DNA from: a virus
Reading direction: 5' to 3' (one strand)
IMG/VR virus record: IMGVR_UViG_3300036985_003153
Span: 1-24,669 of that record
DNA: 24,669 nt
Shown here in pieces: positions 1 to 21,397 of this stretch (position 1 is its first letter; the number at the start of each line of letters is the position of its first letter). The translations under genes and the position numbers were made by a program. The notes beneath the pieces were generated by a model. It did no database searches. It had not been told where the DNA came from and saw nothing but the letters and a program-made list of their open reading frames with translations.

Positions 1-269
1 GGTCTACGGCGCAGTCCCCCGCGATAGTAATGACTTTGCTACCTTTGAAAAACTCAGGCTCTGGGTATAACAGTCCGTTGTCGGTAGGGGGTGATGCTGA
101 CGCTACTATTACGCGGTCTGCGGTTATACCGGTTGAGGAGTTCACTGGGCAAGTATATACCCGGCTACGGGGTAGGCAGATGTCGATGCAAGTAGAGTCT
201 ACTGCGCTGGGTGTGGCGTGGCAGTTGGGTGCTCCTCGTTTGGATATTCGTCCTGACGGCAGGCGTTGA
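1..269 (+). CDS. Phage virion structural protein, C-terminal fragment
   Basis: The reading frame is open to the left edge of the window (codons from base 3 read S-T-A-Q-S-P-A-I-V before the first ATG at 30), so this is the C-terminal end of a longer protein and the ATG at 30 is internal. The last 30 or so residues include VYTRLRGRQMSMQVES and end in WQLGAPRLDIRPDGRR. From memory this resembles the C-termini of long phage tail or head-tail connector proteins in which a basic 'R-x-D-G-R-R' end follows a beta-rich domain; I cannot name the family. It sits at the head of a same-strand series of virion genes with only 5 nt to the next start, which supports a structural role. The function is inferred from context and a partial motif memory, not from a full domain. 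Confidence 0.75.
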   Translation, partial: STAQSPAIVMTLLPLKNSGSGYNSPLSVGGDADATITRSAVIPVEEFTGQVYTRLRGRQMSMQVESTALGVAWQLGAPRLDIRPDGRR

Positions 270-274
270 CCTAA

Positions 275-628
275 ATGGCTACTATTACTATTACCCAAAT
301 ACCTGCACCGGCATTACCGCAGGCGCCAGACGAGTATGACAAAGCCTACATAGACGGGTTAAACAAAGTATTGCGCATATACTTCAATCAGCTAGGTGCA
401 ATACGACAGTACAATGCAGCGCGGTTAAACTTTAGCTTAGATACACTTCCTACTCAGGCTGACCTGCCTAACTTAAGGATAGGTGATGTGTACCGGGATA
501 CCGTCGATGGTGTCCAAGCCACAAGCCAGATGCTAAGGATAAAAACGTCGATAAACGACACTGTTGTGGCTACTGGAGTAAGTAGTACAGGTAGTGTTGG
601 AACCGTAGTTCTAGTGATAACGCCGTAG
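275..628 (+). CDS. Small phage structural-region protein (117 aa), unknown function
   Basis: This encodes 117 residues starting MATITITQIP; the ATG lies 5 nt after the previous stop, so it is probably translated by reinitiation, since only a weak GGCAGG-type site precedes it. The N-terminal half has the pattern Y-D-K-A-Y-I-D-G-L-N-K-V-L-R-I-Y-F-N-Q-L (about residues 21-40), a likely amphipathic helix. The C-terminal half (GDVYRDT through VGTVVLVITP) looks beta-rich. Small proteins of this general shape occur between tail-type genes in marine phage genomes and are usually annotated hypothetical. I see no catalytic motif, signal peptide or transmembrane segment. A minor virion component is an inference from position only. 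Confidence 0.8.
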   Translation: MATITITQIPAPALPQAPDEYDKAYIDGLNKVLRIYFNQLGAIRQYNAARLNFSLDTLPTQADLPNLRIGDVYRDTVDGVQATSQMLRIKTSINDTVVATGVSSTGSVGTVVLVITP

Positions 629-639
629 GAGCAGGGTAG

Positions 640-2319
640 ATGGGTGATTCAGTAGGTAAAGAAGACGTACCGGAGGGGATATATACGACCGAGGTTTCTG
701 CCCTTCGACCTCGGTCAATGAACCCGTACAACTACGACTTTTACGCCTATATAGACGACCTCCGTAGAATGCAGGAGGCAGACGACTTTAGGGTGGCTAC
801 TGCGGGCACTGGGAACACACCAGCGGGGTTAGACCAAGCTTATGACAATGCAGCGGCAGCGGCGGTAGCAGCGGAAGGGGCCCTCGGTGCATTAGACCCG
901 GACACAACAGACCCCATTGAGTACTTAGAAGCTGAAAGGATTCGCAACGCCGCAATAGACGCTGCTAAGGTCGCTGCTATTGCTTCCGGTAGCATAGGGT
1001 TGCCCGGCAACTTGCAGCGGGATGATGATATATCTTTTTTGCAGAGGCTAAGCAATATACCCGTTGTAGGCCGTGTTGCCGACACTATTGGGGATGGGCT
1101 GGATTGGCTTAGGGGTGCAGACCGTAGCGCCCTCTTTTCACCAGCTGGAGCGGGAATTGTTTTTGACTACGGCTCGGGTGCAGGGGGAGTGGGCCCTACT
1201 ACGACCCCCATTCCGGTTGGCACCTACGCGGGTACATCTGCTTATGTAAGTACGGGTGTCCCTGCGATAGATGCTTTAATAAACGCGGGGCTAGGCAATA
1301 ACACGGGAACAAGCACTGCGGGTAGCGTGGCCCGTGGGGTGTTAACGGGTGCTATAGACGAAGCCACCCTGCCCGGTGTGGGCGAAATACTTATGCTTGG
1401 GGGCGAAACACCACGTTTTCCTTTGCCGCGTCTTCCTCCACCGCCGCCCCCACCGCCGCCCCCACCGCCGCCCCCACCGCCACCACCACCTCTGCCGCCT
1501 CCACCGCCACCACCACCTCCGCCGTCTCAGGACTGTAGCGATCCGGTGTATGCCGCCGAGCACCAAGTTGAGTGCTTTGGCTTAGGGGCTGGTCCTTTTA
1601 AAGTTGATGGCCCCGCAACAGACACCTTTCCACCCCCACCGCCGCCTCCGCCGTCCCAGAACTGTAACGACCCAGTGTATGCCGCTGAGCATCGGGCTGA
1701 GTGCTTTGGCCCTGTTACCATTGATCGCTCTGCGCTTGATGCTCCTGTGTATGGCCCCACGAATATACCTCCTAAGGTGGTTACCCCTCCACCACCTCCA
1801 CCGCCGCCGCCCCCACCGCCTCCACCTCCACCGCCGCCGCCGCCGCCCCCACCGCCGCCGCCTCCGCCGCCACCACCTCCGCCGTCTCAGGACTGTGGTA
1901 ATCCAGTGTATGCCGCCGAACACCGAGCCGAGTGCTCCGGGGCACCTCCGCCGCCTCCGCCGCCTCCGCCGCCTCCGCCGCCTCCGCCGCCACCAGCCCC
2001 CAAAAACTGTAGCGACTCGGTGTATGCCTTACTGCACCCAGCGGAATGCGCCCGTGCTAGTACCCCAACCCTCCCAGTAGGCGAAGAGTCTTACCAACAA
2101 GTAACGACGACACCCGGGGACCTTACCGATATAAAGTATCTATATGACGTTGGTGGGGAAAGCATATTTGCACCGAATATGTCGGATGATGACCCCATTA
2201 GCTACCTATCTCCATATGCTTCGCGTATTACTTCGCCCTACACCTCCTACGCAAGTGGTGGTAAAGTAAGTGAACACGATATAGTTGCAGAAGCTCTACG
2301 TTTACTGCGAGGGAATTGA
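640..2319 (+). CDS. Polyproline / cysteine-cassette virion-region protein (559 aa)
   Basis: The start at 640 has an AGGAGC ribosome site at about 627-632 overlapping the upstream stop. Residues 1-265 are Ala/Gly/Asp-rich with no recognised domain. Residues about 266-476 hold four polyproline runs (19 Pro-Leu-10 Pro, 8, 33 and 17 Pro), each followed by a cassette of the form C-x2-[PS]-V-Y-A-x2-H-x3-C; the cysteine pairs are C299/C312, C342/C355, C419/C432 and C457/C470. The C-terminus, SYASGGKVSEHDIVAEALRL, looks like a compact conserved end and shares an A-x-G-G motif with the next virion genes. Proline codons are mixed (ccg, ccc, cca, cct) in most runs, so the run is kept at protein level. 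Polyproline would form a stiff PPII rod; each cysteine pair could form a disulfide outside the cell. A virion spike, fibre or ejected protein is inference. I do not recognise the family. Confidence 0.85.
   Translation: MGDSVGKEDVPEGIYTTEVSALRPRSMNPYNYDFYAYIDDLRRMQEADDFRVATAGTGNTPAGLDQAYDNAAAAAVAAEGALGALDPDTTDPIEYLEAERIRNAAIDAAKVAAIASGSIGLPGNLQRDDDISFLQRLSNIPVVGRVADTIGDGLDWLRGADRSALFSPAGAGIVFDYGSGAGGVGPTTTPIPVGTYAGTSAYVSTGVPAIDALINAGLGNNTGTSTAGSVARGVLTGAIDEATLPGVGEILMLGGETPRFPLPRLPPPPPPPPPPPPPPPPPPPLPPPPPPPPPPSQDCSDPVYAAEHQVECFGLGAGPFKVDGPATDTFPPPPPPPPSQNCNDPVYAAEHRAECFGPVTIDRSALDAPVYGPTNIPPKVVTPPPPPPPPPPPPPPPPPPPPPPPPPPPPPPPPPSQDCGNPVYAAEHRAECSGAPPPPPPPPPPPPPPPPPAPKNCSDSVYALLHPAECARASTPTLPVGEESYQQVTTTPGDLTDIKYLYDVGGESIFAPNMSDDDPISYLSPYASRITSPYTSYASGGKVSEHDIVAEALRLLRGN
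1435..2049 (+). repeat. Four polyproline-plus-cysteine-cassette repeats inside the 559-aa gene
   Basis: Cassettes lie at about 1525-1575, 1654-1704, 1885-1935 and 1999-2049; each encodes C-x12-C with VYA and a His between the cysteines. The first three are nearly the same protein sequence (SQDCSDPVYAAEH, SQNCNDPVYAAEH, SQDCGNPVYAAEH) but differ at many third codon positions. The fourth (KNCSDSVYALLHPAEC) is the most diverged. The proline run before the fourth cassette (1945-1989) is an almost pure 9-nt repeat of cctccgccg, while the other runs use mixed codons. Confidence 0.9.
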
Positions 2320-2320
2320 C

Positions 2321-3334
2321 ATGCCTAAATGGTTAAATAGCCTAGGTAAAAGCGCTAAAGACTTTTTTGCCCCCGGGGGTGACGTTGACTGGGCTAAGGT
2401 TGCCGGGGCAACGGGTCTTACCATAGCCGCTGTAAAAGCGTTGTCGGAATCTGACCTTGGGGCCAAGATCGGAGAGTTCATGGGGATTGGCGGCAACCAA
2501 CAGCCCACTGGGTACCAAGGCAAAATACCAGACTACACGGGTATCAGATCAGTAGTTGGTGGTACATACGATCCGCTGCGCCGACCCGGTAGCGGTGGGC
2601 AACGCTATTTTAGCGACATGTCTTTTGCAACGCCAAGTGACGCACAGGGGTTGCAGTCTATAGCGGACACACAGGCTGCTGCCAGACAAACCCTAAACAG
2701 GGATAACCCCGCACAACAACTTCGCCCCCAGCTGCAACGAACGCCTGCGGAAATCGCGGCTAAATACAACTTCATACAGAATCAAACTCCTGATTTTAGC
2801 CAAGACCAGAAGAACCAGCAGGTGCAGGCGGCGATGAATAAACACGGTATATCCCCTCTTATGCTTGCAGAGGCTACTGGTTTGCCCGTGGCTAAGATCC
2901 AGCAAAAAGCTAGAGAGTACACAGGTCTTGCTCCGCGTATTCCCGCAGTAGCGCCAACAACCAACATAAACAAAACCCTACAGGATTTGATCGCTGCGTC
3001 CCAACCTCGTGCCTACGGGACTGGGCAAATGCCGCCCCCGGTTATGCAGATGGCCCAAGGGGGTTTAGCTTCCTTAACGCATGGGATGTACCTCGGTGGA
3101 CCTACAGATGGCATGGCGGATAAAATCCCCGCTAATATCGACGGCACCCAAGAAGCTGCGTTAAGCGATGGCGAGTTCGTCTTGCCCGCCGATGTGGTTA
3201 GCCACCTTGGTAATGGGAACTCAGAAGCAGGGGCTCAAGTTTTGTACAGTATGATGGAGCGGATACGCAAAGCTCGCACTGGTACTACGGCACAAGGTAA
3301 ACAAATTAACCCCGGCAAAATGTTGCCGAAGTGA
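2321..3334 (+). CDS. Virion-region protein with GG-TDG / LSDGEF module (337 aa)
   Basis: The ATG at 2321 follows the previous stop by one base, with a GCGAGGGA site about 8 nt upstream; a longer frame from 2285 would overlap the previous gene by 35 nt and has no good ribosome site, so 2321 is preferred. The N-terminus MPKWLNSLGKSAKDFFAPGG is amphipathic and is followed by a hydrophobic Ala/Val/Gly stretch. The middle (about 95-225) is Gln- and Ala-rich and probably helical. The C-terminal part (about 245-337) contains MAQGGLASL, then YLGGPTDGMADKIPANIDG, then LSDGEFVLPADVVSHLGNG, then a helix (YSMMERIRKARTG). This module is familiar from uncharacterised virion proteins of marine phages, where it usually closes the protein. 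No enzyme motif is visible. Internal or ejected virion protein is inferred from neighbours. Confidence 0.85.
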   Translation: MPKWLNSLGKSAKDFFAPGGDVDWAKVAGATGLTIAAVKALSESDLGAKIGEFMGIGGNQQPTGYQGKIPDYTGIRSVVGGTYDPLRRPGSGGQRYFSDMSFATPSDAQGLQSIADTQAAARQTLNRDNPAQQLRPQLQRTPAEIAAKYNFIQNQTPDFSQDQKNQQVQAAMNKHGISPLMLAEATGLPVAKIQQKAREYTGLAPRIPAVAPTTNINKTLQDLIAASQPRAYGTGQMPPPVMQMAQGGLASLTHGMYLGGPTDGMADKIPANIDGTQEAALSDGEFVLPADVVSHLGNGNSEAGAQVLYSMMERIRKARTGTTAQGKQINPGKMLPK

Positions 3335-3342
3335 GGTAGGTG

Positions 3343-4212
3343 ATGGTTGACGCAGTGCAGGGTCCAATTGGTCAAGAATCCTCCCTATCTAACTGGGCGG
3401 GTTCGTACGTCACCGACATGCTTGGCAAGGGTAAGGCACTCGCGTCTACGCCGTATCAAGCCTATAGCGGTCCCCTTACTGCGGGGCAGTCTGGGCTACA
3501 TAACCAAGCCTATCAGGGGCTGTCCTCGCTCTCTATGCCTACGTCTACGATGGGGGCTTATTCTCCTACGTCATTTAATGACCCGGGTGTAGCAGAGCAG
3601 TACATGAATCCCTACCTTAGCGCGTCACTGGAGCCCCAGTTGGCTGAAGCCCAACGCCAAGCCGATATCCAACGTGTGCAGAACGCAGGCAGGATGACTA
3701 AAGCGGGGGCTTATGGTGGTTCCCGTCAAGCCATTATGGATTCCGAAGGTATCCGCAACTTACTGCGCAACATGGCAGACATAACAGGCCAAGGCTACAA
3801 CCAAGCCTTTACGCAAGGTCAGGGACAGTTTAATACTGAGGAACAACGCCGCCAGCAGGCCCAGCAATCCACTAACCAGTACGGCTTTGATGTTGCTAAC
3901 GCCCAGCAGGGTGCAGGTGCCGTCCAACGTGGTATTGAGAGCGAAGGTATTGCAGCGGACTACGGGCAGTTTAAAGAAGAACGTGATGACCCATTCAAGA
4001 AACTTCAGTATCAGCAGTCACTACTTCAGGGTATGCCAGTAGAAGCACAGTCTAATACGTATACTCAACCTACTGGGCTTAGCTCGTTAATAGGCGCTAG
4101 TGGCGGAATTTTAGAGTTCTTAAAAAATATGGGACTTATGGGCGGTTCTGCTGATGGAAACCCCAACAAAGACCCTAACCCATCCAGCGTTCTAAAAACA
4201 GCGGGCCAATAA
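3343..4212 (+). CDS. Gln/Ala-rich virion-region protein (289 aa)
   Basis: I choose the ATG at 3343 (MVDAVQG) over the in-frame GTG at 3340 because a GAGGTAGG site spans the previous stop at about 3333-3340 and gives normal spacing to the ATG. The N-terminus contains WAGSYVTDMLGKGKALA and a YQAYSGPLTAGQSGLHNQAY segment. The centre (about 85-215) is a long Gln/Ala/Arg-rich helical stretch with LEPQLAEAQRQADIQRVQNA. A short hydrophobic Gly/Leu segment (LIGASGGILEFLKNMGLMGG) lies near the C-terminus. The 'PYL-S-LEPQLAEA-R' style is familiar from uncharacterised internal virion proteins of uncultured marine phages. There is no recognisable enzyme domain. The four preceding and following genes run the same way with short gaps, consistent with one late operon. 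Confidence 0.85.
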   Translation: MVDAVQGPIGQESSLSNWAGSYVTDMLGKGKALASTPYQAYSGPLTAGQSGLHNQAYQGLSSLSMPTSTMGAYSPTSFNDPGVAEQYMNPYLSASLEPQLAEAQRQADIQRVQNAGRMTKAGAYGGSRQAIMDSEGIRNLLRNMADITGQGYNQAFTQGQGQFNTEEQRRQQAQQSTNQYGFDVANAQQGAGAVQRGIESEGIAADYGQFKEERDDPFKKLQYQQSLLQGMPVEAQSNTYTQPTGLSSLIGASGGILEFLKNMGLMGGSADGNPNKDPNPSSVLKTAGQ

Positions 4213-4226
4213 CTGAGTACAAGGCA

Positions 4227-5840
4227 ATGGCATACGGAATCGGCAGCATACTAGGCGACATTGACCAGAAGGCGGATACGTACCGGAATAACCCGGATGC
4301 GTTAGCGCAGTCGTACCAGCAGAATCAACAGCTGATTGATTTGCTTGTGTTGCAGAAGCTAAAAACCGACAAGGAAGCGGCGCAGCGCGATATGCAGGCG
4401 AAGATGCAGACCCCTGCGTCTACTATAAAAGACCAACGGCAAGAGCAGGTTATGGGCATGACCCGTAACGAAGTAGCCCAGCAAGTTTCCCCGGGCCTCC
4501 AAGCCCTCGCCCAACAGCAGCAAGCCGCCCAAGCACAAGGGATATCTTCTCTCCCTGCGCCTAACATGCAGCAGGTTGGTATGGCTGAGGGCGGCATTGT
4601 TGCGTTTGCTGAGGCTGGGTCGGTTGAGGGTACGGAAAGTGGGGGCGAGGGTTTTGATTGGCAGACGTTAGGCGGTATAACTGCCGCCACCGCTATGTAC
4701 GGGCCTAGCGTTGTTAGCGCTATCCAAAAAGGAGGACCAGCGGCAAAAGCGGCCCTTGAGTTTATAAAAAAGACACCAGTTAAAGCGCTGCCGGGGATGG
4801 CGCGTAATCTTGCAAGACCCGCTATACCTATCATGTCTGCTTACGAAACGGCCACTACTCCCACAGAAGATTACAGAGAAAGGTTTGGTTTTGATCCTAG
4901 TGCCAGCGAGGGCATATTGGGGTTTATCGAAGATTTAGGCGTACGAACTCTAGGGGCGGCGTCTGACCTTGGAAATGTTGGGACATTTGGGTTGGCCGGG
5001 AACTTGTACAGGGATAAACAGCCTGAATTAGAAGCTATTCCCCCACCCGTTTCACCACGAGCCGAAGCTCCAAGAGCACCTACCCAAATCATGGGCACCG
5101 GTCCGCTACCGACACCTGCTCCAACCCGGGGCATATCCAGCATCACCAACGCGGATAACGAACGTAATATAGCCTCCATGCTAGGAGAAGATTTAAACGT
5201 ACCTAAGGTACCAGCTAAAGCTATGGAAAGAACACCGTCAACGCCTCAATCGGCATACGCCCAACAGTTGGCTGACTTGCGCATGGAACAGGAAAGTAAG
5301 TTGGAATCTCTTATTGCATTCCTAAAAGGCGCAGGGGGTCAGTCGTCCTTTGCCGCTACCATGATGGGCGGTAGTGATGCTATGAATGCGCGTGAAGCTG
5401 GAGTAAAAGCAGAGATAATGGATGTCCTCGGTAAGCTCGAAACCATCGACTTGAAAGAGCGAGAGCTTGGTATAGCGGAAGAAGCCAATGTTATTGACCG
5501 CGAGCAAATTCAGGCTACCCTTGATGCAGCAAGGTACAACACAGACCAAGACTATGCTGCGGCTATGGCCCAAATAGATGCTAGCATAGCAAACGCAAAA
5601 AATTCTGATGACCTGCTTAGAGCCGCAACGCTCCTTAATAGTACGCGGAAAAGCCTTCAGGATTCGACTGAGTTTGCTGACGCGGCTACCAAACAAACCC
5701 TTATTGCCCAGATAGCCCAAATTGACGCTAGGTTAGAAGCGGTGTACCAACAGGCGGGTATTGCGCCCGTAACTTCCGTGGCCCCCACTGGCAATGAGAT
5801 TGACGCAGATACTCAAGCGGCTTTAGACCAATACAAATAG
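4227..5840 (+). CDS. Virion-region protein with MAEGGIVA motif (537 aa)
   Basis: The start MAYGIGSILGDIDQKADTYR is preceded by only a weak site (AAGG close to the ATG), so coupling to the upstream gene 14 nt away is likely. Residues about 30-115 are Gln-rich helix, ending at MQQVGMAEGGIVAFAEAG. Residues about 145-260 include Ala/Gly-rich hydrophobic stretches. A Pro-rich linker (about 270-300) leads into a Gln/Ala/Glu-rich C-terminal coiled-coil-like region (about 335-510). The 'MAEGGIV-F-A-G' motif recurs widely in uncharacterised phage virion proteins in my memory. Helical, Gln-rich architecture and placement directly before the giant protein suggest an internal core or ejection protein, comparable in role but not visibly in sequence to the T7 gp14/gp15 set. 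This is inference. Confidence 0.85.
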   Translation: MAYGIGSILGDIDQKADTYRNNPDALAQSYQQNQQLIDLLVLQKLKTDKEAAQRDMQAKMQTPASTIKDQRQEQVMGMTRNEVAQQVSPGLQALAQQQQAAQAQGISSLPAPNMQQVGMAEGGIVAFAEAGSVEGTESGGEGFDWQTLGGITAATAMYGPSVVSAIQKGGPAAKAALEFIKKTPVKALPGMARNLARPAIPIMSAYETATTPTEDYRERFGFDPSASEGILGFIEDLGVRTLGAASDLGNVGTFGLAGNLYRDKQPELEAIPPPVSPRAEAPRAPTQIMGTGPLPTPAPTRGISSITNADNERNIASMLGEDLNVPKVPAKAMERTPSTPQSAYAQQLADLRMEQESKLESLIAFLKGAGGQSSFAATMMGGSDAMNAREAGVKAEIMDVLGKLETIDLKERELGIAEEANVIDREQIQATLDAARYNTDQDYAAAMAQIDASIANAKNSDDLLRAATLLNSTRKSLQDSTEFADAATKQTLIAQIAQIDARLEAVYQQAGIAPVTSVAPTGNEIDADTQAALDQYK

Positions 5841-5858: not shown

Positions 5859-8800
5859 ATGGCACAGCTCCAAGAAGCATTGCAGGCGTTTCGCAACGCA
5901 CACGCAGCCGGGGATGTAGGGGCCGCAACCCGCTTGGCTGCGTTAGTTAGGCAATTGCAAACAGGGCCGCAGCCCGCAGTAGAGCCACCCCCCGAGTCTG
6001 GGTTTTTTAGCGAAATTGGACGCGGTGCGGAGCAACTAGCGTCTAGCTATCGTACGGCTGGCAGTTCCGTAATAGGGGACGCTGACGAGGCAGCGCTTGC
6101 GGGGTTACAACGCCAGCAAGCTATACAGGATAAATACGGGGAAGGTGCGTCTTTTGCCCGTGTAAAACAAGCGTACGACGAGGAAGGTTTGTTGTCCGCT
6201 ATAGGGGCGGGCATTGGGCAGATACCTGAGGCTGTTGGTGCTCAACTACCCCAACTAGGGGTTACTGCCGCAGGTGCGCTGTTGGGGCAACTTGCCATAC
6301 CCATACCGTTTTTAGGCGCAGGTGTTGGTGCTGCCACTGCGTTACTTCCACAGTTCTTTGGTGCCAACGTGGAGCGCCAAGCGGCGGAACAACAAGCTAC
6401 GGGTGCCCCAGTAGACGTAAATGTAGGTAAAGCGGCGCTCGCGGCAGCGGCACAGACCGTTCCGGAAGTGGCAGCTACCTACATTACGTTTGGTAAACCT
6501 TTGATTAAGTCCATACTAGGCATTGCCGATGACGTAGGTTTGGATGCTAACGCCGCTCGTAACCTCACCGCCGTAGCGGTTCGTACCTTAGCCCAACAAG
6601 GTAAAGGGGGTGTTGCTCAGCTTGGGCGTAATGTTGGTACAGGCGCGGTTCGCGGCGCTGCTGTTGAAATGCCCACTGAGATAGCCCAACAAGTAATTGA
6701 ACGCGCTCAAGCGGGGTTGGATGTTCTGGGCCCCGAAGCTTTTGCGGAGTACGGTGAAGCTGCTTACTTAGCAGGCACTGTTGGCGGTGTGTTTGGGGGT
6801 GCATCCGGGCTTACTACGCGGTCTAGGGCCCGTACCCGCCTAAGGGGGCTTGCGGAGGAAGAACAACAAGATTTGTTTACCGCGCAGCGCGAGCAGTTGG
6901 ACCAGAAGGGCCAAATGGAGCTAGAGGGGGTTGACCCAGTTCTTGCGCCCACAACCCAAGCGGGTGCGGCACAGCAAGCCGCAGCACAGGTACAGCAGAG
7001 TAACAACGAGGGGTTTTTTACCCGAAGCGGAAACCAAGACTTTGCACCTGCTGGGTTAGGTGGGGAAGATACTGGGGCCCTGCCGGTTATAGTTAGTGAT
7101 GCTGATGTGTTTGCGATAATGAAAAACCGCAAGCTTACGGAAGCAACGGCGGTTAATACCCTACCCCCGGCTGACCGGGAAGTATTTGATTCGATTAAGA
7201 GCGCCATGAACATCGAAGCGCTGATGCAACGGGCAGCGGCGCAAGCCAGCAGAACACTCGTTGGGGTCAACGAAACCCCCCCCGTATTTGACGCTCGTAA
7301 GGCGCTGTCGGAGTTATCCCCCGAAGAACGTGCGGTATTTGACCAGACCGTTGCCGATATTAAAACTCAGCGTTCTACAGATAAACAGGGCGAGCTGTTT
7401 GCCGTGCAAACCACCCCGGAGCAAGTTGAAAAGGCACAACTAGCACGTAAAAAGACCCTAAGTAATGAAGAGCTGAAAGCCCAAAAAGCTCAAGAGGCAG
7501 CTACCCTCCGGGCGCAAAAACAGGCTGAAATAGTCGCAAGGCAAGCTGCGCAAAAGCAAGCTGCTGACGCTAAATTAGCTGCAAAGCAACAAGTTGCCGC
7601 ACGAAAACAAGGAGTCGCGGACTTAACTGCCCCGGTGGACTTGCTATCCCCCCTCCGATCTCCCCTAGAGCAAGTGCTTGGAGTCAATGAGCTGGAAAAA
7701 GAACAAGCAAACGTAGCCAAGATTGCTGCCCGCCAACCCCGCTTACAGGATGCTGCTGCGTTTGAAAATTTTCTTGCACGTCCAGAATCTCAAACGCCTA
7801 CTCTTACTTCTACTACTGCCCCTGTGCTAAAGCCCGAACAGGCTAAAAAAGTTAAACAACCAATTGCACCAAAGGTACCCGTAGATGGCCAAGTTAAAAC
7901 CGTCGAAGCAAAAGCGCAAAAACCAAAACTGGGACAAGAAACACCCCCGACCGGAAACATTGATACCCCAATCGCCACCCCCCCTGCGATTACCGGCAAA
8001 AAACTAAAGCCTTCCGTTAAACCAGTAACCAAACCCGTAGCTAAACCTGCGGTGAAGCCAGTAATCAAACCCGTAGTTGAACCCGTAACTGAATCCGTAG
8101 CCGGGCCCGCAGTAAAACGCGTAGTAAAACCCGCAACTAAACCTGTGCCGTCAAAGGTCCCAGAGTTAAGCTTTATTAAAAAACGTAATACACCTCCAAC
8201 CCAAGACGTTGTGACGGAGACAGGGGTGGAGCTAGACACAGAGAATTATACACCCGCGGTATTAACCCCCGCGGAACAGGTGTTGAAGGCGGAAGCTGTG
8301 AAACGCGGGGATGCCGAAATAAAAGCAGCTACAGCGGATACGGCGGTGGGTGGTATTACTCTTAGTAAGGAAAAGGCAGACATAGTAGCTGCGCTTCCTG
8401 CCCAGAAACAAGCATATACGGAAGCGGGGGGTAAAACTAAGTACCTGCGCAAATCGGGCCCCGAACAGATAAGACAAATCATTCACAAAGGACCCAAATA
8501 CCAAGGTAAGTCCTTTGACGCCACCATGCGGGCGCTGGTTGAGAAGGGCAACATAGATGCCGTACTAGACGCAATTATAAAGACAGCTAAACCCGAGATA
8601 GCGCAGATACTACGCAAGGTTAAATCCCTTGGGCTGAAGACAAAGATTATTGTTGGCGCAGTGGAGGGCGACTCCTCCGGTTTTTACAACACCACCACCG
8701 ACACCATCACACTCGACCCAGACTCTGGGCTTAACGAGCACATCTTTATTCACGAAGTTCTCCATGCCGCGCTATCCAAAGTGTTTGCCAATCCAAACCT

Positions 8801-11789
8801 CAAGATCACTAAAGATATGCAGAAGTTCTTCATGCAGATCAAGGATCGCATGGGTGATTCCTACGGCGGGCTAAACCTAGATGAGTTTGCCTCTGAGCTA
8901 GTAAGTAACCCGGAGTTCCAAGCGCTGCTTAAGACTATCAAAGCACCGCGAAGCGGGAGCTTGTGGGACCGTATCATGCAGGCTATTGCCGAGTTCTTTG
9001 GTTTTTCCAAAGGGCAATCTGCGTACGAGGCTGGGCTCAAGTTTGTATCAGACGCTTTAGATGTATCCGAGGGTGTGGAAGCAAACCCAGCAGAGGTAAT
9101 ACTCTACGGCCCCCCGGCTTCCGCCGTCCAAGCCCTGAAAGACATCGAAGCCTCCGGGGACCCCGCAACTGCAAAAACACTTAGCACCATACGCGAGGAG
9201 TTGGAGTCAACAACTTCTGGGGTACAGAAACTAGCGTTTAGTGTGTTGCGGTTAGACAACATTTACCAAATGTATAAAAACGCCGGGGTTAAGTACGCAA
9301 AATTTGCACGGGCTTTGAAACAACTTATTGATGCCTCGGAGCAACGCACTGGGTACGTAGAAAATAGAGTCTCAGATGCCAACGCAAAATACAAAGAATT
9401 TCAAAAGGTCACTAAGCAACACCCTGCGGCGGTGCAGCGCATGGCTAAATTTGCTGCGGAAGCGCGTATAGCGGCGTTGGATTTTTTACCGGAATCTAAA
9501 TTCGTTCCTACTCCCGGGCAGCAAGACGCGTATAACCGATTAAAAAACGTATTAGCCAACCTACCTGCACCCGTGCGGGACATGTATTTTACCATGCGCC
9601 GGGACTATAACCAGATACATAAAGAGTTTCGTAGTTTGCTGCTGAGCCAGTACTCCGGTAACCCCACGTTGCGGGCAACCATGCAAATGCGTTTTGAAGC
9701 TGAGCATCCAGTGGTGGGGTATGTACCTTTTATGCGCTTTGGGGATTTCGTTCTTGAGTACACAGATACCCGAGCTGACCGCCGTGTGGTGGAGCAGTTT
9801 GAGACACAAGAGGAACGTGACAGGAAGATAAAAGAGCTTAGCCTAAATGACGGCGAATACGAAACATACTCCCGGATAGACAACGCTTCTTATGATGCTA
9901 CAAAGGTGCCACCCGCTTCCTTTGTGCACAAAGTACTGGCGGATTTAGCCAGCAAAGGTGCCCCGCAAAACCAGCTAAACGCAGTGTACCAAACGTATTT
10001 GAGCATGTTCCCCGCTGAGTCCAGTGTTAAACGCATGATGCGGTCAGAAAACGTGGCGGGCATGTCCACTGATGTAGCTAGGGTATACGCAAATACCATG
10101 ATCTCGTTGGCGCGTCACATGAGTAATGCCTTGTACCTGCCCGATATAGACAGCGCGTTGCTGACAATAGAAGCCGAACGAGACCTAGATAATAGCGTAC
10201 GGGCTATCAGTAGTAATTTGAACAGCAAAGAGTCCAAGGACTTTTTCCACAACCCCACGTTTACGCCGTTGGTTGCAAAAATTACTGCCGTGAGTTACGC
10301 CGCGTTCATATTGGGCAGTGTGGCTTCTGCTGCCATCAACTTAACTTCTTTGGGTATATTGGGGTATCCCCTGCTGGGCGGACGCTTTGGGTACCCCGAA
10401 GCAGCCGAGGCTATGGCGGCAGCAAGCAAGACGGCCATTGGCAAGTACGATGTATGGGGTAACAGCCCCCGCTATAAACAGTTGTTTAACACTCTAAATA
10501 ACCACGGTCAGTTGCAGCATACCCAGACGCGAGAAATTCTTGAGGGGCGTAGCGAATCGACGGAAGACTCCCAAGGGATAATTGCCCGGGGCATGGTGTT
10601 TGCGGGCATACCGTTTAACGTCACAGAGAAAGTTAACCGCGCAGTTATGGCTATTGCCGCTTATGAACTTGCCAAAAAAGGTGGCAACGGGGTTAACCCG
10701 ATGTCGGACCGCGAAGCCATTGCGTATGCACTGGATGCTGTTAAGCAAGTAAACACATCGGGCATGGCTATAACGGGACCCAAGCTATTCCAGAGTCCTC
10801 TTGGGCGCGTGTTTGGTACGTTCAAAACCTTTGCTTGGAACGGTGCGTTCGTTGTTGCTAGGTCCATGCGAGATTCTCTTAAGGGAGAAAGCCCGGAGGT
10901 GAAGCGCATTGCCCGCCGCCAGTTGATGGGTACTTTGCTTACGACTACTGCGGTTAGCGGAGTAGCAGGGGCTCCGTTTTTAGGGGTGTTCCTTGGGTTT
11001 GCCGAGGTAGTAAATAACCTTATGCAAAGCATGTCGGATGAGGACGAGGATGACTTCGAGTACTGGAATAGTGACGAATGGCTACAGGACACGGTAAAAG
11101 AAATTGCTTACAAAGGTCCGTTAAACTACTACACCAATCTGGCAATTGCTGACCGTGCTGCGCTAACCAAAAACTTAGTATTCCGCGAAGACCCCCAGTT
11201 AATTGAAGACGTAGGGTATCTCCGGGCTATGTTGATTCAATCCCTTGGGCCTACTGTGGGCTACTTAGCCAACGTAGAAGCGGGGGTTAAATTGTTCCAA
11301 GAGGGGTTCTATGGCCGCGGGTTTGAGCAAATAATGCCTTCCGCTGTTGGCAACATGCTACGCGCTGCGCGTTTCTTGGACGAGGGTGGGGTTCTTACCA
11401 AAGACGGCAAAGTAATTTCCGAAGATATTAGTGAGTACAACGCCGTGATGCAGATGGTAGGCTTTGGCCCGGCAGACCTTGCGCTGCTTTACGAAGAACG
11501 TGGTATGGCTATGGATTTGCAAACATTTGCATTTGCCCAACGAGATCGGCTACTCGATCTAGCATGGGTGTCGAGGGACGCGGGAGACGAGGATATGTTG
11601 CAAGAAGCGCTGCGCAAGCTGCGTATACTAGGTGCACGATACCCCGGACTTGTTAAGCGTGGTACTTTGGCCGATTCTTTCCGTAGTAGAAGGGCCGCTA
11701 TCCTAGAAAGTACTAACGGGCTAAGGCTAAACCCCGTGCTGCGCAATGAAATGATTACCCGCTTCGAGAGCTTAGACGAGGGGGAGTAA
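5859..11789 (+). CDS. Giant internal/ejection virion protein with HEVLH metallopeptidase motif (1976 aa)
   Basis: Residues about 130-165 form a long Gly/Ala hydrophobic segment (LGAGVGAATALLPQFFG). Residues about 520-590 are a Lys/Ala/Gln coiled-coil stretch, and about 715-770 a KPV-type tetrapeptide-repeat linker. A zinc metallopeptidase signature follows: IFIHEVLHAAL with H965, E966 and H969, and about 40 residues later LDEFASELVSNPEF, where E1009 or E1013 could be the third zinc ligand. The C-terminal half is helical and has further hydrophobic segments near residues 1470-1510 and 1687-1720, plus PFNVTEKVNRAVMAIAAYEL and KTFAWNGAF. Proteins of this build resemble phage polyvalent proteins, and the position fits a T7 gp16-like ejected protein; here a peptidase replaces the transglycosylase of gp16. 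Substrate (peptidoglycan stem, host protein or virion protein) cannot be told. It is the last gene of the plus-strand block. Confidence 0.88.
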   Translation: MAQLQEALQAFRNAHAAGDVGAATRLAALVRQLQTGPQPAVEPPPESGFFSEIGRGAEQLASSYRTAGSSVIGDADEAALAGLQRQQAIQDKYGEGASFARVKQAYDEEGLLSAIGAGIGQIPEAVGAQLPQLGVTAAGALLGQLAIPIPFLGAGVGAATALLPQFFGANVERQAAEQQATGAPVDVNVGKAALAAAAQTVPEVAATYITFGKPLIKSILGIADDVGLDANAARNLTAVAVRTLAQQGKGGVAQLGRNVGTGAVRGAAVEMPTEIAQQVIERAQAGLDVLGPEAFAEYGEAAYLAGTVGGVFGGASGLTTRSRARTRLRGLAEEEQQDLFTAQREQLDQKGQMELEGVDPVLAPTTQAGAAQQAAAQVQQSNNEGFFTRSGNQDFAPAGLGGEDTGALPVIVSDADVFAIMKNRKLTEATAVNTLPPADREVFDSIKSAMNIEALMQRAAAQASRTLVGVNETPPVFDARKALSELSPEERAVFDQTVADIKTQRSTDKQGELFAVQTTPEQVEKAQLARKKTLSNEELKAQKAQEAATLRAQKQAEIVARQAAQKQAADAKLAAKQQVAARKQGVADLTAPVDLLSPLRSPLEQVLGVNELEKEQANVAKIAARQPRLQDAAAFENFLARPESQTPTLTSTTAPVLKPEQAKKVKQPIAPKVPVDGQVKTVEAKAQKPKLGQETPPTGNIDTPIATPPAITGKKLKPSVKPVTKPVAKPAVKPVIKPVVEPVTESVAGPAVKRVVKPATKPVPSKVPELSFIKKRNTPPTQDVVTETGVELDTENYTPAVLTPAEQVLKAEAVKRGDAEIKAATADTAVGGITLSKEKADIVAALPAQKQAYTEAGGKTKYLRKSGPEQIRQIIHKGPKYQGKSFDATMRALVEKGNIDAVLDAIIKTAKPEIAQILRKVKSLGLKTKIIVGAVEGDSSGFYNTTTDTITLDPDSGLNEHIFIHEVLHAALSKVFANPNLKITKDMQKFFMQIKDRMGDSYGGLNLDEFASELVSNPEFQALLKTIKAPRSGSLWDRIMQAIAEFFGFSKGQSAYEAGLKFVSDALDVSEGVEANPAEVILYGPPASAVQALKDIEASGDPATAKTLSTIREELESTTSGVQKLAFSVLRLDNIYQMYKNAGVKYAKFARALKQLIDASEQRTGYVENRVSDANAKYKEFQKVTKQHPAAVQRMAKFAAEARIAALDFLPESKFVPTPGQQDAYNRLKNVLANLPAPVRDMYFTMRRDYNQIHKEFRSLLLSQYSGNPTLRATMQMRFEAEHPVVGYVPFMRFGDFVLEYTDTRADRRVVEQFETQEERDRKIKELSLNDGEYETYSRIDNASYDATKVPPASFVHKVLADLASKGAPQNQLNAVYQTYLSMFPAESSVKRMMRSENVAGMSTDVARVYANTMISLARHMSNALYLPDIDSALLTIEAERDLDNSVRAISSNLNSKESKDFFHNPTFTPLVAKITAVSYAAFILGSVASAAINLTSLGILGYPLLGGRFGYPEAAEAMAAASKTAIGKYDVWGNSPRYKQLFNTLNNHGQLQHTQTREILEGRSESTEDSQGIIARGMVFAGIPFNVTEKVNRAVMAIAAYELAKKGGNGVNPMSDREAIAYALDAVKQVNTSGMAITGPKLFQSPLGRVFGTFKTFAWNGAFVVARSMRDSLKGESPEVKRIARRQLMGTLLTTTAVSGVAGAPFLGVFLGFAEVVNNLMQSMSDEDEDDFEYWNSDEWLQDTVKEIAYKGPLNYYTNLAIADRAALTKNLVFREDPQLIEDVGYLRAMLIQSLGPTVGYLANVEAGVKLFQEGFYGRGFEQIMPSAVGNMLRAARFLDEGGVLTKDGKVISEDISEYNAVMQMVGFGPADLALLYEERGMAMDLQTFAFAQRDRLLDLAWVSRDAGDEDMLQEALRKLRILGARYPGLVKRGTLADSFRSRRAAILESTNGLRLNPVLRNEMITRFESLDEGE

Positions 11790-20589: not shown

Positions 20590-20812
20590 GCGTGTACTCC
20601 TTCCAATTTTGTTTTACTTGCTTATGGGGTTTTGGGGGTGCCGCGTTCATGTTTATGACAAACGGCGTTGCTTTCCCACTGGGGTGGTAACCTGTGGCCC
20701 CCTCCGGTATTTGTTGCACCACACCGCCGCAGCGCAGAAACGCCGCTACGTGTTTTTCCAGCGCAGCGCGTCTGATTTGGCTTCCGGTGTACTGTATTTC
20801 TTCTTCGTTCAT
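20579..20812 (-). CDS. Small protein with SutA-like segment (77 aa)
   Basis: The ATG at 20812 follows an AGGAG site with eight-base spacing; that site lies in the last codons of the upstream gene, and the first bases form an ATGA stop/start overlap. The product MNEEEIQYTGSQIRRAALEK continues HVAAFLRCGGVVQQIPEGAT and ends in a Pro/Lys-rich, basic tail. The core 'R-A-L---V-AFL--GG-VQ-IP' resembles the conserved helix and following loop of the RNA-polymerase-associated regulator SutA and related small proteins, a resemblance I recall rather than have tested. If right, it may modulate host RNA polymerase. The end overlaps the DUF3310 start by 11 nt. Confidence 0.78.
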   Translation of the reverse strand: MNEEEIQYTGSQIRRAALEKHVAAFLRCGGVVQQIPEGATGYHPSGKATPFVINMNAAPPKPHKQVKQNWKEYTHGK

Positions 20813-21006
20813 TTCACTTGCTCCTGTGCCTGTGCCTTCGCTTGCTGGAACGCATCCCACGCCGCCTCCCACGCCCCCTCCGCCTTCTCCGCCGCCTCCA
20901 CCGCCTTCTCCGCCGCCTCCACCGCCTTCTCCGCCTCCGCCTTCGCCTCCGCCTCCGCCTTCGCCGCCTTCACCGCCGCTTCTAGCCTTTTGATTTCTTC
21001 GCTCAT
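20809..21006 (-). CDS. Ala/Glu/Lys coiled-coil small protein from internal start (65 aa)
   Basis: From the ATG at 21006 the frame gives MSEEIKRLEAAVKAAKAEAE, then repeated AVEAAEK heptads, then GAWEAAWDAFQQAKAQAQEQ and VK-stop. Glu/Lys-flanked alanine heptads indicate a single long helix, probably a dimeric coiled coil. An AGGAG site eight bases before the ATG makes independent translation likely whether or not the upstream frame runs through. Its TGA overlaps the next ATG. The coding DNA contains a perfect 21-base repeat. Small Ala-rich helical proteins of this kind are scattered in phage genomes; no function is known to me. Confidence 0.6.
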   Translation of the reverse strand: MSEEIKRLEAAVKAAKAEAEAKAEAEKAVEAAEKAVEAAEKAEGAWEAAWDAFQQAKAQAQEQVK

Positions 21007-21201
21007 TTCACTTGCTCCTGTATTACCCAAAAAATCAGTACCACGCTCCGTTCTAATTCGGGTTGGAGTGAACCGAAGTTCAGGAGGGATGACGATTTTG
21101 CGCCGCATCCCATACTCTCCATCCGTCTCGCCGCCCATCAGGGGCGTATATTCCTCATCGTTGTGCCGGTCAGCATCGCCACCAGCGTCATTAGGTTCCA
21201 T
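20809..21201 (-). CDS. Small acidic/basic protein reading into an Ala/Glu coiled coil (130 aa as read)
   Basis: The ATG at 21201 has a GGAGG site six bases upstream and overlaps the previous stop by 11 nt. The first part (MEPNDAGGDADRHNDEEYTP, then KIVIPPELRFTPTRIRTERG) is unrelated in character to the second part, which starts at an internal ATG (21006) with its own AGGAG site. As written the frame runs straight through that site. A one-base loss in the A6 run at 21029-21034 (T6 in the gene) would instead end the first part at ...RGTDFWVIQEQVK and a TGA overlapping the internal ATG, exactly like the other junctions here. So this is either a 130-aa fusion or two 65-aa genes with a frameshift or sequence error. 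Function unknown. Confidence 0.6.
   Translation of the reverse strand: MEPNDAGGDADRHNDEEYTPLMGGETDGEYGMRRKIVIPPELRFTPTRIRTERGTDFLGNTGASEMSEEIKRLEAAVKAAKAEAEAKAEAEKAVEAAEKAVEAAEKAEGAWEAAWDAFQQAKAQAQEQVK
20881..20940 (-). repeat. 21-bp tandem repeat in the coiled-coil gene
   Basis: Two perfect 21-base units lie at 20881-20901 and 20902-20922, followed by a partial third to 20940. Each unit encodes one seven-residue heptad of the type AVEAAEK on the minus strand, so copy-number change would lengthen or shorten the coil by whole heptads without a frameshift. Confidence 0.85.
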
Positions 21202-21397
21202 CACACGCCTCCGCAGTATTGTTGTAGTCGGGCCAGCCGTACTCGCCGTCTGACTCAATAAATATTTTTACCATGTCGCAGTGCAGTTGCGCTTTCCGCG
21301 CTTCGGCTTCGTAATCCATCGTGCTTACGACACACGCCACCACTACCGCAAACAGTGTGACCACGACCACGTACAAATTTACTATGTAGTTTTTCAT
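21191..21397 (-). CDS. Small single-span membrane protein (68 aa)
   Basis: The ATG at 21397 overlaps the previous stop as ATGA. Residues about 5-25 (IVNLYVVVVTLFAVVVACVV) form one strongly hydrophobic helix after a short MKNY start with one lysine, so an N-in membrane anchor or uncleaved signal is likely. The 40-residue remainder (STMDYEAEARKAQLHCDMVK, IFIESDGEYGWPDYNN) is acidic, with two cysteines, and would face the periplasm. The 'GEYGWPDY' element is, from memory, recurrent in phage hypothetical proteins. The size and topology would also suit a spanin or holin accessory, but it lies among early genes and no endolysin is nearby, so I do not assign lysis. Confidence 0.75.
   Translation of the reverse strand: MKNYIVNLYVVVVTLFAVVVACVVSTMDYEAEARKAQLHCDMVKIFIESDGEYGWPDYNNTAEACDGT

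What the first reader, a model, noticed from the sequence alone, without database searches (positions are those of the whole stretch)
1435..2049. Virion-region protein built of long polyproline rods alternating with two-cysteine cassettes
Four proline runs (19+L+10, 8, 33, 17) alternate with four cassettes of the form C-x12-C carrying VYA and a central His. Three cassettes are almost identical in protein but differ in third codon positions, so the protein pattern appears selected. PPII rods spaced by small disulfide- or metal-capable knots would be an unusual phage structural design, perhaps a stiff extendable fibre or a periplasm-crossing ejected protein. The architecture is seen; the structural role is inference.
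Basis: partly seen in the sequence, partly recalled or inferred. Interest (0 to 1): 0.72.

Follow-up and report, generated by a model that had tools for sequence, protein, structure and literature searches.

The report
Phage spacer of proline rods and knots
A virus of bacteria carries, among its tail and DNA-delivery genes, a protein whose middle is a string of stiff proline rods and tiny cysteine-paired knots; the knots recur in dozens of environmental phages and very probably form internal sulphur bridges, but close relatives replace them with other flexible spacers, so they look like an adjustable extender rather than an indispensable part.

Summary
The 559-aa ORF 640-2319 has proline runs of 19+L+10, 8, 33 and 17 and four C-x12-C cassettes, which hold all 8 of its cysteines. 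The 'central His' is a local variant: Asn is the rule (75 of 77 distinct cassettes).

The gene belongs to an undescribed phage family found in 59 viral loci. It lies between a gp10-like tail gene (35/35 loci that reach it) and a 'DGEFV' protein (42 downstream, 7 fused), next to predicted ejection genes. The ends are conserved, above all the C-terminal 'YLYDIGGESIFAP...GG...LLRG' tail. The spacer between them is hypervariable: polyproline with cassettes, PT, GT or DTVV repeats.

The cassette C-x-[DN]-P-[AV]-Y-A-A-x-N-P-x-x-C occurs in 62 viral loci, all in frame, and in none of 257 Gb of prokaryote genomes. All 28 complete non-redundant cassette proteins have an even cysteine count (2-100; p = 4e-9; controls about 50:50), so the cysteines are paired, most simply as disulfides.

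Best reading: a tunable, partly stiff, oxidation-locked tether in the tail/ejection apparatus. Virion presence and function are unproven. A resemblance to a single-disulfide alpha-conotoxin mini-fold is only a lead (E 0.1-0.3).

The parts
640..2319 (+). Whole gene, 559 aa, member of the 'SIFAP-tail' family
   Evidence: ORF; 59 related loci through the C-terminal profile; synteny
730..984 (+). N-terminal helical region (residues 31-115), weakly conserved
   Evidence: AlphaFold2 helices 31-55, 61-83, 92-115, pLDDT about 53-73
1252..1281 (+). Motif TGVPAIDALI, shared by the family upstream of the spacer
   Evidence: family sequences and alignment
1435..1524 (+). Proline rod 1 (P19-L-P10)
1534..1575 (+). 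Cassette 1 CSDPVYAAEHQVEC
   Evidence: predicted helix-kink-helix
1630..1653 (+). Proline rod 2 (P8)
1663..1704 (+). Cassette 2 CNDPVYAAEHRAEC
1786..1884 (+). Proline rod 3 (P33)
   Evidence: pLDDT about 88-93 in the model
1894..1935 (+). Cassette 3 CGNPVYAAEHRAEC
1945..1995 (+). Proline rod 4 (P17)
2008..2049 (+). Cassette 4, divergent: CSDSVYALLHPAEC
2092..2316 (+). Conserved C-terminal tail YQQVTTTPGDL..YLYDVGGESIFAP..ASGGKV..LLRGN
   Evidence: alignments A1, A2, A4
3..269 (+). C-terminal end of the gp10-like tail (stabilisation) protein, cut by the window edge
   Evidence: similar to the C-terminus of L008:86-1933 by reading; that protein matches phage 'stabilization protein' and 'needle head protein' records
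275..628 (+). 117-aa protein between gp10-like gene and spacer gene; position of a tail needle
   Evidence: order; the relatives' 216-aa counterpart has a jelly-roll-like C-terminus by reading only
2321..3334 (+). 'LSDGEFVxPADVVSHLGNG' protein; fused to the spacer protein in 7 relatives
3340..4212 (+). Predicted DNA ejection protein
   Evidence: phrog_4287, E 4e-6
4227..5840 (+). 537-aa protein of the same module
   Evidence: syntenic in relatives
5859..11789 (+). 1976-aa giant protein (LPD39 and DarB-like similarity), last gene of the module
   Evidence: PF18858 E 2e-5, below its curated cut-off; phrog_10089 E 3e-55

Best explanation
It is a tail/ejection-module protein made of two conserved ends and a changeable spacer. 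Shown: a partly helical N-terminal half and a conserved C-terminal tail, at a fixed place between the gp10-like tail gene and the ejection genes, with a hypervariable low-complexity spacer between them. In this branch the spacer grew by tandem duplication of a unit of polyproline rod plus two-cysteine cassette, under selection that keeps the cassette core and the pairing of cysteines. Inferred: the C-terminal tail docks the protein at the portal/tail or its DGEFV partner. The spacer works as a length-tunable tether, stiff where it is polyproline-II helix and kinked at the cassettes. The C1-C14 disulfides close only after the protein leaves the reducing cytoplasm (on lysis, or on delivery into the periplasm), with Tyr6 and Asn/His10 packing on the disulfide, turning a threadable chain into a protease-resistant string of knots.
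For: Exact anatomy. Family by C-terminal profile, 59 loci. Fixed synteny: gp10-like upstream 35/35, DGEFV downstream 42 or fused 7. Spacer swapped between relatives. Cassette in 62 viral loci, all 62 in an open frame, and 0 in 257 Gb of genomes (about 1 expected by chance by my estimate). Even Cys count in 28/28 non-redundant cassette proteins, p 3.7e-9, against 50 even/56 odd in control ORFs; zero Cys in 22 of 29 family members without cassettes. pN/pS 0.28. Helix-kink-helix in all four cassettes and confident rods in the model. Neighbour matches an ejection family.
Against: No virion proteomics or structure for any relative. Cassettes and polyproline are absent from syntenic relatives, so nothing shows that they are needed. 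The whole model is low-confidence (pLDDT 57) with no fold match. Even Cys counts could be inherited with duplicated two-Cys units, though the units differ widely in sequence and spacing. The N-terminal half has no recognisable domain.
Confidence: 0.5

Rival explanations
1. Co-ejected, periplasm-spanning protein: carried in the head reduced and unfolded, threaded through the short tail, then oxidised in the periplasm so that the knots stop it sliding back. The proline rods give it the reach.
For: Genes lie inside the ejection block. The periplasm is oxidising and podovirus tails can be shorter than the envelope (PMC8954989). 87 Pro at 0.31 nm each is about 27 nm, near periplasm width (my arithmetic from general knowledge). 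Cys are paired.
Against: No match to known ejection families for this protein. No strongly hydrophobic segment in the window protein (best 19-residue mean 1.19). Most relatives do without cysteines.
Confidence: 0.22
2. Surface bristle or fibre of the virion whose cassettes are displayed to bind host or particles.
For: Repetitive displayed micro-domains; a cassette also occurs in a protein that reads like a vWA protein (L083); other cassette-bearing phage proteins carry up to 100 Cys.
Against: Conserved C-terminal tail and gene order tie it to the ejection block and to a fused DGEFV partner; linkers and cassette number vary without a conserved binding face apart from Y, N and P.
Confidence: 0.13
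3. Assembly factor or tape-like ruler not kept in the virion.
For: Some distant DGEFV-containing proteins are annotated 'tape measure'.
Against: The gp10-like tail gene suggests a short-tailed phage with no long tail to measure; spacer length varies widely between relatives.
Confidence: 0.08
4. Metal-binding knots (Cys2-His) spaced by rods.
For: C-x12-C plus His in the window and L001.
Against: His is Asn in 75 of 77 distinct cassettes; only two possible ligands remain per cassette.
Confidence: 0.03
5. Near-neutral low-complexity expansion by replication slippage, with no role beyond a linker.
For: Short tandem DNA repeats in the Pro runs and duplicated units; spacer type changes freely.
Against: pN/pS 0.28 and Pro-11 pN 0.03; strict Cys pairing; the same cassette recurs in otherwise different proteins.
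Confidence: 0.1

Closest known systems
P22-type tail/ejection module (gp10, needle gp26, ejection proteins gp7/gp20/gp16)
   Same: Gene order (as I know it for P22): gp10-like tail gene, small needle-position gene, then internal/ejection proteins; one neighbour matches a DNA-ejection PHROG
   Different: No sequence match of this protein to any PHROG ejection family; a polyproline/disulfide spacer was not found described in the papers searched
phrog_21841 (85-aa phage family, unknown function)
   Same: Matches cassette 1 and its flanks, E 6e-5 in the whole protein
   Different: Only one of 42 cassettes matches when scanned alone, E 0.045; function unknown
Single-disulfide alpha-conotoxin analogue (PDB 2n07) and elevenin-type mini-fold
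   Same: Same Cys-to-Cys length, Asp-Pro after the first Cys, His/Asn-Pro before the last Cys, aromatic at the position where the second cystine was removed; the published aromatic-8 cluster with Cys3, His12, Ile15 and Cys16 (PMC4542547) corresponds to Tyr6, Asn/His10, residue 13 and the two Cys
   Different: Statistically weak (E 0.32, 0.1-0.18; shuffled control 0.44); lacks the defining second disulfide; repeated inside a large phage protein; no evidence of toxin action

Membership tests
Family of this gene (SIFAP-tail spacer proteins, defined here) | C-terminal YLYD[IV]GGESIFAP...GG...LLRG | tested here: met
Family of this gene (SIFAP-tail spacer proteins, defined here) | Position between gp10-like gene and DGEFV gene | tested here: met
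Phage DNA ejection proteins (P22/T7 type) | Sequence match to a known ejection family | tested here: not met
   none for this protein; neighbour 3340-4212 matches
Phage DNA ejection proteins (P22/T7 type) | Present in virion and ejected into the host | not testable with these tools
   needs proteomics
Alpha-conotoxin family | Four-Cys framework with two disulfides | tested here: not met
   each cassette has two Cys only
Alpha-conotoxin family | Significant sequence similarity | tested here: not met
   best E 0.097; no Pfam toxin hit
Single-disulfide alpha-conotoxin-like mini-fold (resemblance only) | Helix between the two bonded Cys with an aromatic core residue | tested here: inconclusive
   AlphaFold2 helix at the matching place; Foldseek found nothing at this size
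Disulfide-bonded protein | Paired cysteines | tested here: met
   28/28 even counts; actual bonds not testable here
Zinc-binding Cys/His knot | Conserved Cys/His ligands | tested here: not met
   His not conserved

The most novel reading that the evidence does not exclude
A redox-gated delivery tether: a phage protein that is threaded through the tail as a reduced, unfolded chain and is locked, knot by knot, by oxidation in the host periplasm, using a phage-only single-disulfide mini-fold strung on polyproline rods.
Probability: 0.15. Interest if true: 0.85.

Novelty: new variant of a known kind. Interest (0 to 1): 0.58.

Why it matters
Phage particles are assembled in a reducing cytoplasm, yet these environmental phages encode proteins with 2 to 100 evenly paired cysteines, in this family within the tail/ejection block. 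If the disulfides form on delivery or in the free particle, oxidation would be an unrecognised step of virion maturation or DNA delivery. The cassette is also a compact, repeated, phage-specific two-cysteine module that can be recognised by pattern, which makes a set of unannotated phage proteins classifiable.

Tried and rejected
The N-terminal part alone found no relative in viral contigs. Two cassette patterns were mis-spaced by me and their zero results (and the first own-genome pattern) must be ignored; the corrected pattern is. L002, L004 and L005 from the first pattern scan are chance matches. tblastn of the whole protein, of the L008 relative, of the C-terminal tail and of a cassette array against 50,697 phage records gave nothing credible. 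Syntenic isolate genes (DSL-LC04, Pag-Yong1, CRP-901, HTVC023P, HTVC027P) that I read have no cassettes. Fold searches of both models found nothing. Metal-knot idea dropped because His is not conserved. Assembly artefact judged unlikely: independent contigs L001, L003 and L008 show the same architecture, and Pro codons are mixed. Membership in alpha-conotoxins rejected; kept only as a lead on the mini-fold. Paper searches found no description of such a protein.

Full report
Observation. The ORF at 640-2319 (+) encodes 559 aa with 123 prolines and 8 cysteines. Every cysteine is in a cassette. The cassette pattern is far above chance in the window (3 against 0.00). The rod-plus-cassette unit is a direct repeat of 82-142 nt with about 60-84% identity between copies, so duplication built the array. 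Cassettes 1-3 nevertheless differ by about as many synonymous as non-synonymous codons (11 against 9 over the three pairs), many more synonymous than neutral change would give.

Family. No Pfam family matches. A DNA pattern for the cassette led to two real relatives, L001 and L003, and the C-terminus of L003 to L008 and L009. A profile of the C-terminal tail then fetched 59 viral loci. Wherever the locus reaches far enough, a gp10-like tail gene lies upstream (35 of 35). A protein with the LSDGEFV motif follows (42 loci) or is fused in the same ORF (7 loci), and a homologue of the predicted ejection protein 3340-4212 comes next. This is a strict gene order of the tail/ejection block.

The spacer is not conserved. 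Between the TGVPAID motif and the C-terminal tail, relatives carry PT repeats (L012), polyproline without cassettes (L016; with another Cys pair in L010 and L011), G/T/N repeats (L009/L015), GGDAGT repeats (L018), DTVV repeats (L032), cassettes with few prolines (L022, L126), or ten cassettes with long rods (L008/L014). Cassettes are therefore optional.

The cassette itself is real and selected. The corrected 42-nt pattern occurs in 62 viral loci and in none of 257 Gb of bacterial and archaeal genomes, where by my estimate about one chance match was expected. All 62 viral matches are in open frames. The consensus from 77 distinct cassettes is C-[DSL]-[DN]-P-[AV]-Y-A-A-[AEQ]-N-P-x-[EKI]-C; the scan itself fixes several of these positions. 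Asn, not His, is the usual residue at position 10 (the genome and second viral scans asked for Asn, but the relatives found through the C-terminal tail also carry Asn). Cassettes sit both in this family and in other large cysteine-rich phage proteins, one with 100 cysteines. Within proteins, pN/pS is 0.28; because the search fixes positions 1, 6, 7, 10 and 14, the unconditioned Pro-11 (pN 0.03, pS 0.53) is the cleaner figure.

Cysteine pairing. All 28 complete, non-redundant cassette proteins have an even number of cysteines, from 2 to 100 (binomial p 3.7e-9). Of family members without cassettes, 22 of 29 have none at all, six an even number and one an odd number. Other ORFs in the same loci split 50 even to 56 odd. 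One complete cassette ORF from the wider list, L081 with 23 cysteines, is odd; its match did not meet the cassette definition used. Shared ancestry and duplication of two-cysteine units lower the effective sample, but the units differ in sequence and spacing. Paired, disulfide-bonded cysteines are the simplest reading.

Structure. AlphaFold2 of one cassette with 42 sequences gives mean pLDDT 79 and a helix at cassette positions 4-9, a kink, then a short helix at 11-15. The full-length model (mean 57) repeats this for all four cassettes and is confident mainly in rods and cassettes. No fold match was found. A profile of cassettes against all PDB sequences hits only alpha-conotoxin Vc1.1 analogues, at E 0.32 and 0.1-0.18; a column-shuffled control reached 0.44 with unrelated proteins, so this is not significant. 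It is still a useful lead. The published disulfide-deleted analogue keeps its fold with one disulfide and an aromatic residue that clusters with Cys3, His12, Ile15 and Cys16 (PMC4542547). These positions correspond to Tyr6, His/Asn10, residue 13 and both cysteines of the phage cassette. A single-disulfide peptide with a similar fold is known and regarded as possible convergence (PMC9963005). The phage cassette lacks the second disulfide that defines the toxin family, and nothing here suggests toxin action.

Mechanism. What is shown: gene position, conserved ends, a changeable spacer, a selected two-Cys cassette, paired cysteines. What is inferred: virion location, docking through the C-terminal tail, extension by polyproline-II rods (about 27 nm for 87 prolines at 0.31 nm each), and oxidation after leaving the cytoplasm. 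The two main versions, a tether that stays in the particle or a chain delivered into the oxidising periplasm (PMC8954989), cannot be separated without proteomics.

Verdict. The fibre/periplasm reading is only partly supported. The phage-specific cassette, with its strict cysteine pairing, is the part worth following.

Noticed in passing
window 1786-1884: 33 consecutive proline codons should stall ribosomes strongly without EF-P, so expression of this gene should depend on the host's EF-P (general knowledge, not tested).
   Followed up: no
L085, L097, L103, L113, L122 (cassette ORFs): Phage proteins of about 980-1500 aa with 84-100 cysteines in many kinds of two-Cys units; L085 and L103 end in RQEFPITDYLSGLFTGR-like tails and carry the cassette near the C-terminus.
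   Followed up: partly
L104: 13 pattern matches to the cassette in a tandem array, those listed spaced at exactly 69 nt, most repeats identical in protein, suggesting very recent expansion.
   Followed up: partly
L001, L003/L017, L010, L011: A second cassette type, C-x-x-G-x-x-x-[DN]-x-x-G-x-C-V, occurs beside or in place of the first.
   Followed up: partly
window 2321-3334 (residues 166-199 of its protein); L008 spacer protein residues 461-506: A short helical module resembling phrog_686 (HTH) is shared between the DGEFV protein of the window and the spacer protein of relatives.
   Followed up: no
L025, L030-L033, L035, L047: Spacer protein and DGEFV protein are fused into one polypeptide, suggesting that they act in the same structure.
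   Followed up: yes
window 5859-11789: 1976-aa protein carries an HExxH-like motif (HEVLHA) and LPD39/DarB-like similarity; likely a delivered giant protein.
   Followed up: no
window 20694-21258: Another low-complexity stretch: a proline/serine-rich + strand ORF (20694-20993) opposite an Ala/Glu/Lys-rich minus-strand ORF (20809-21258); probably only the minus-strand frame is real.
   Followed up: no
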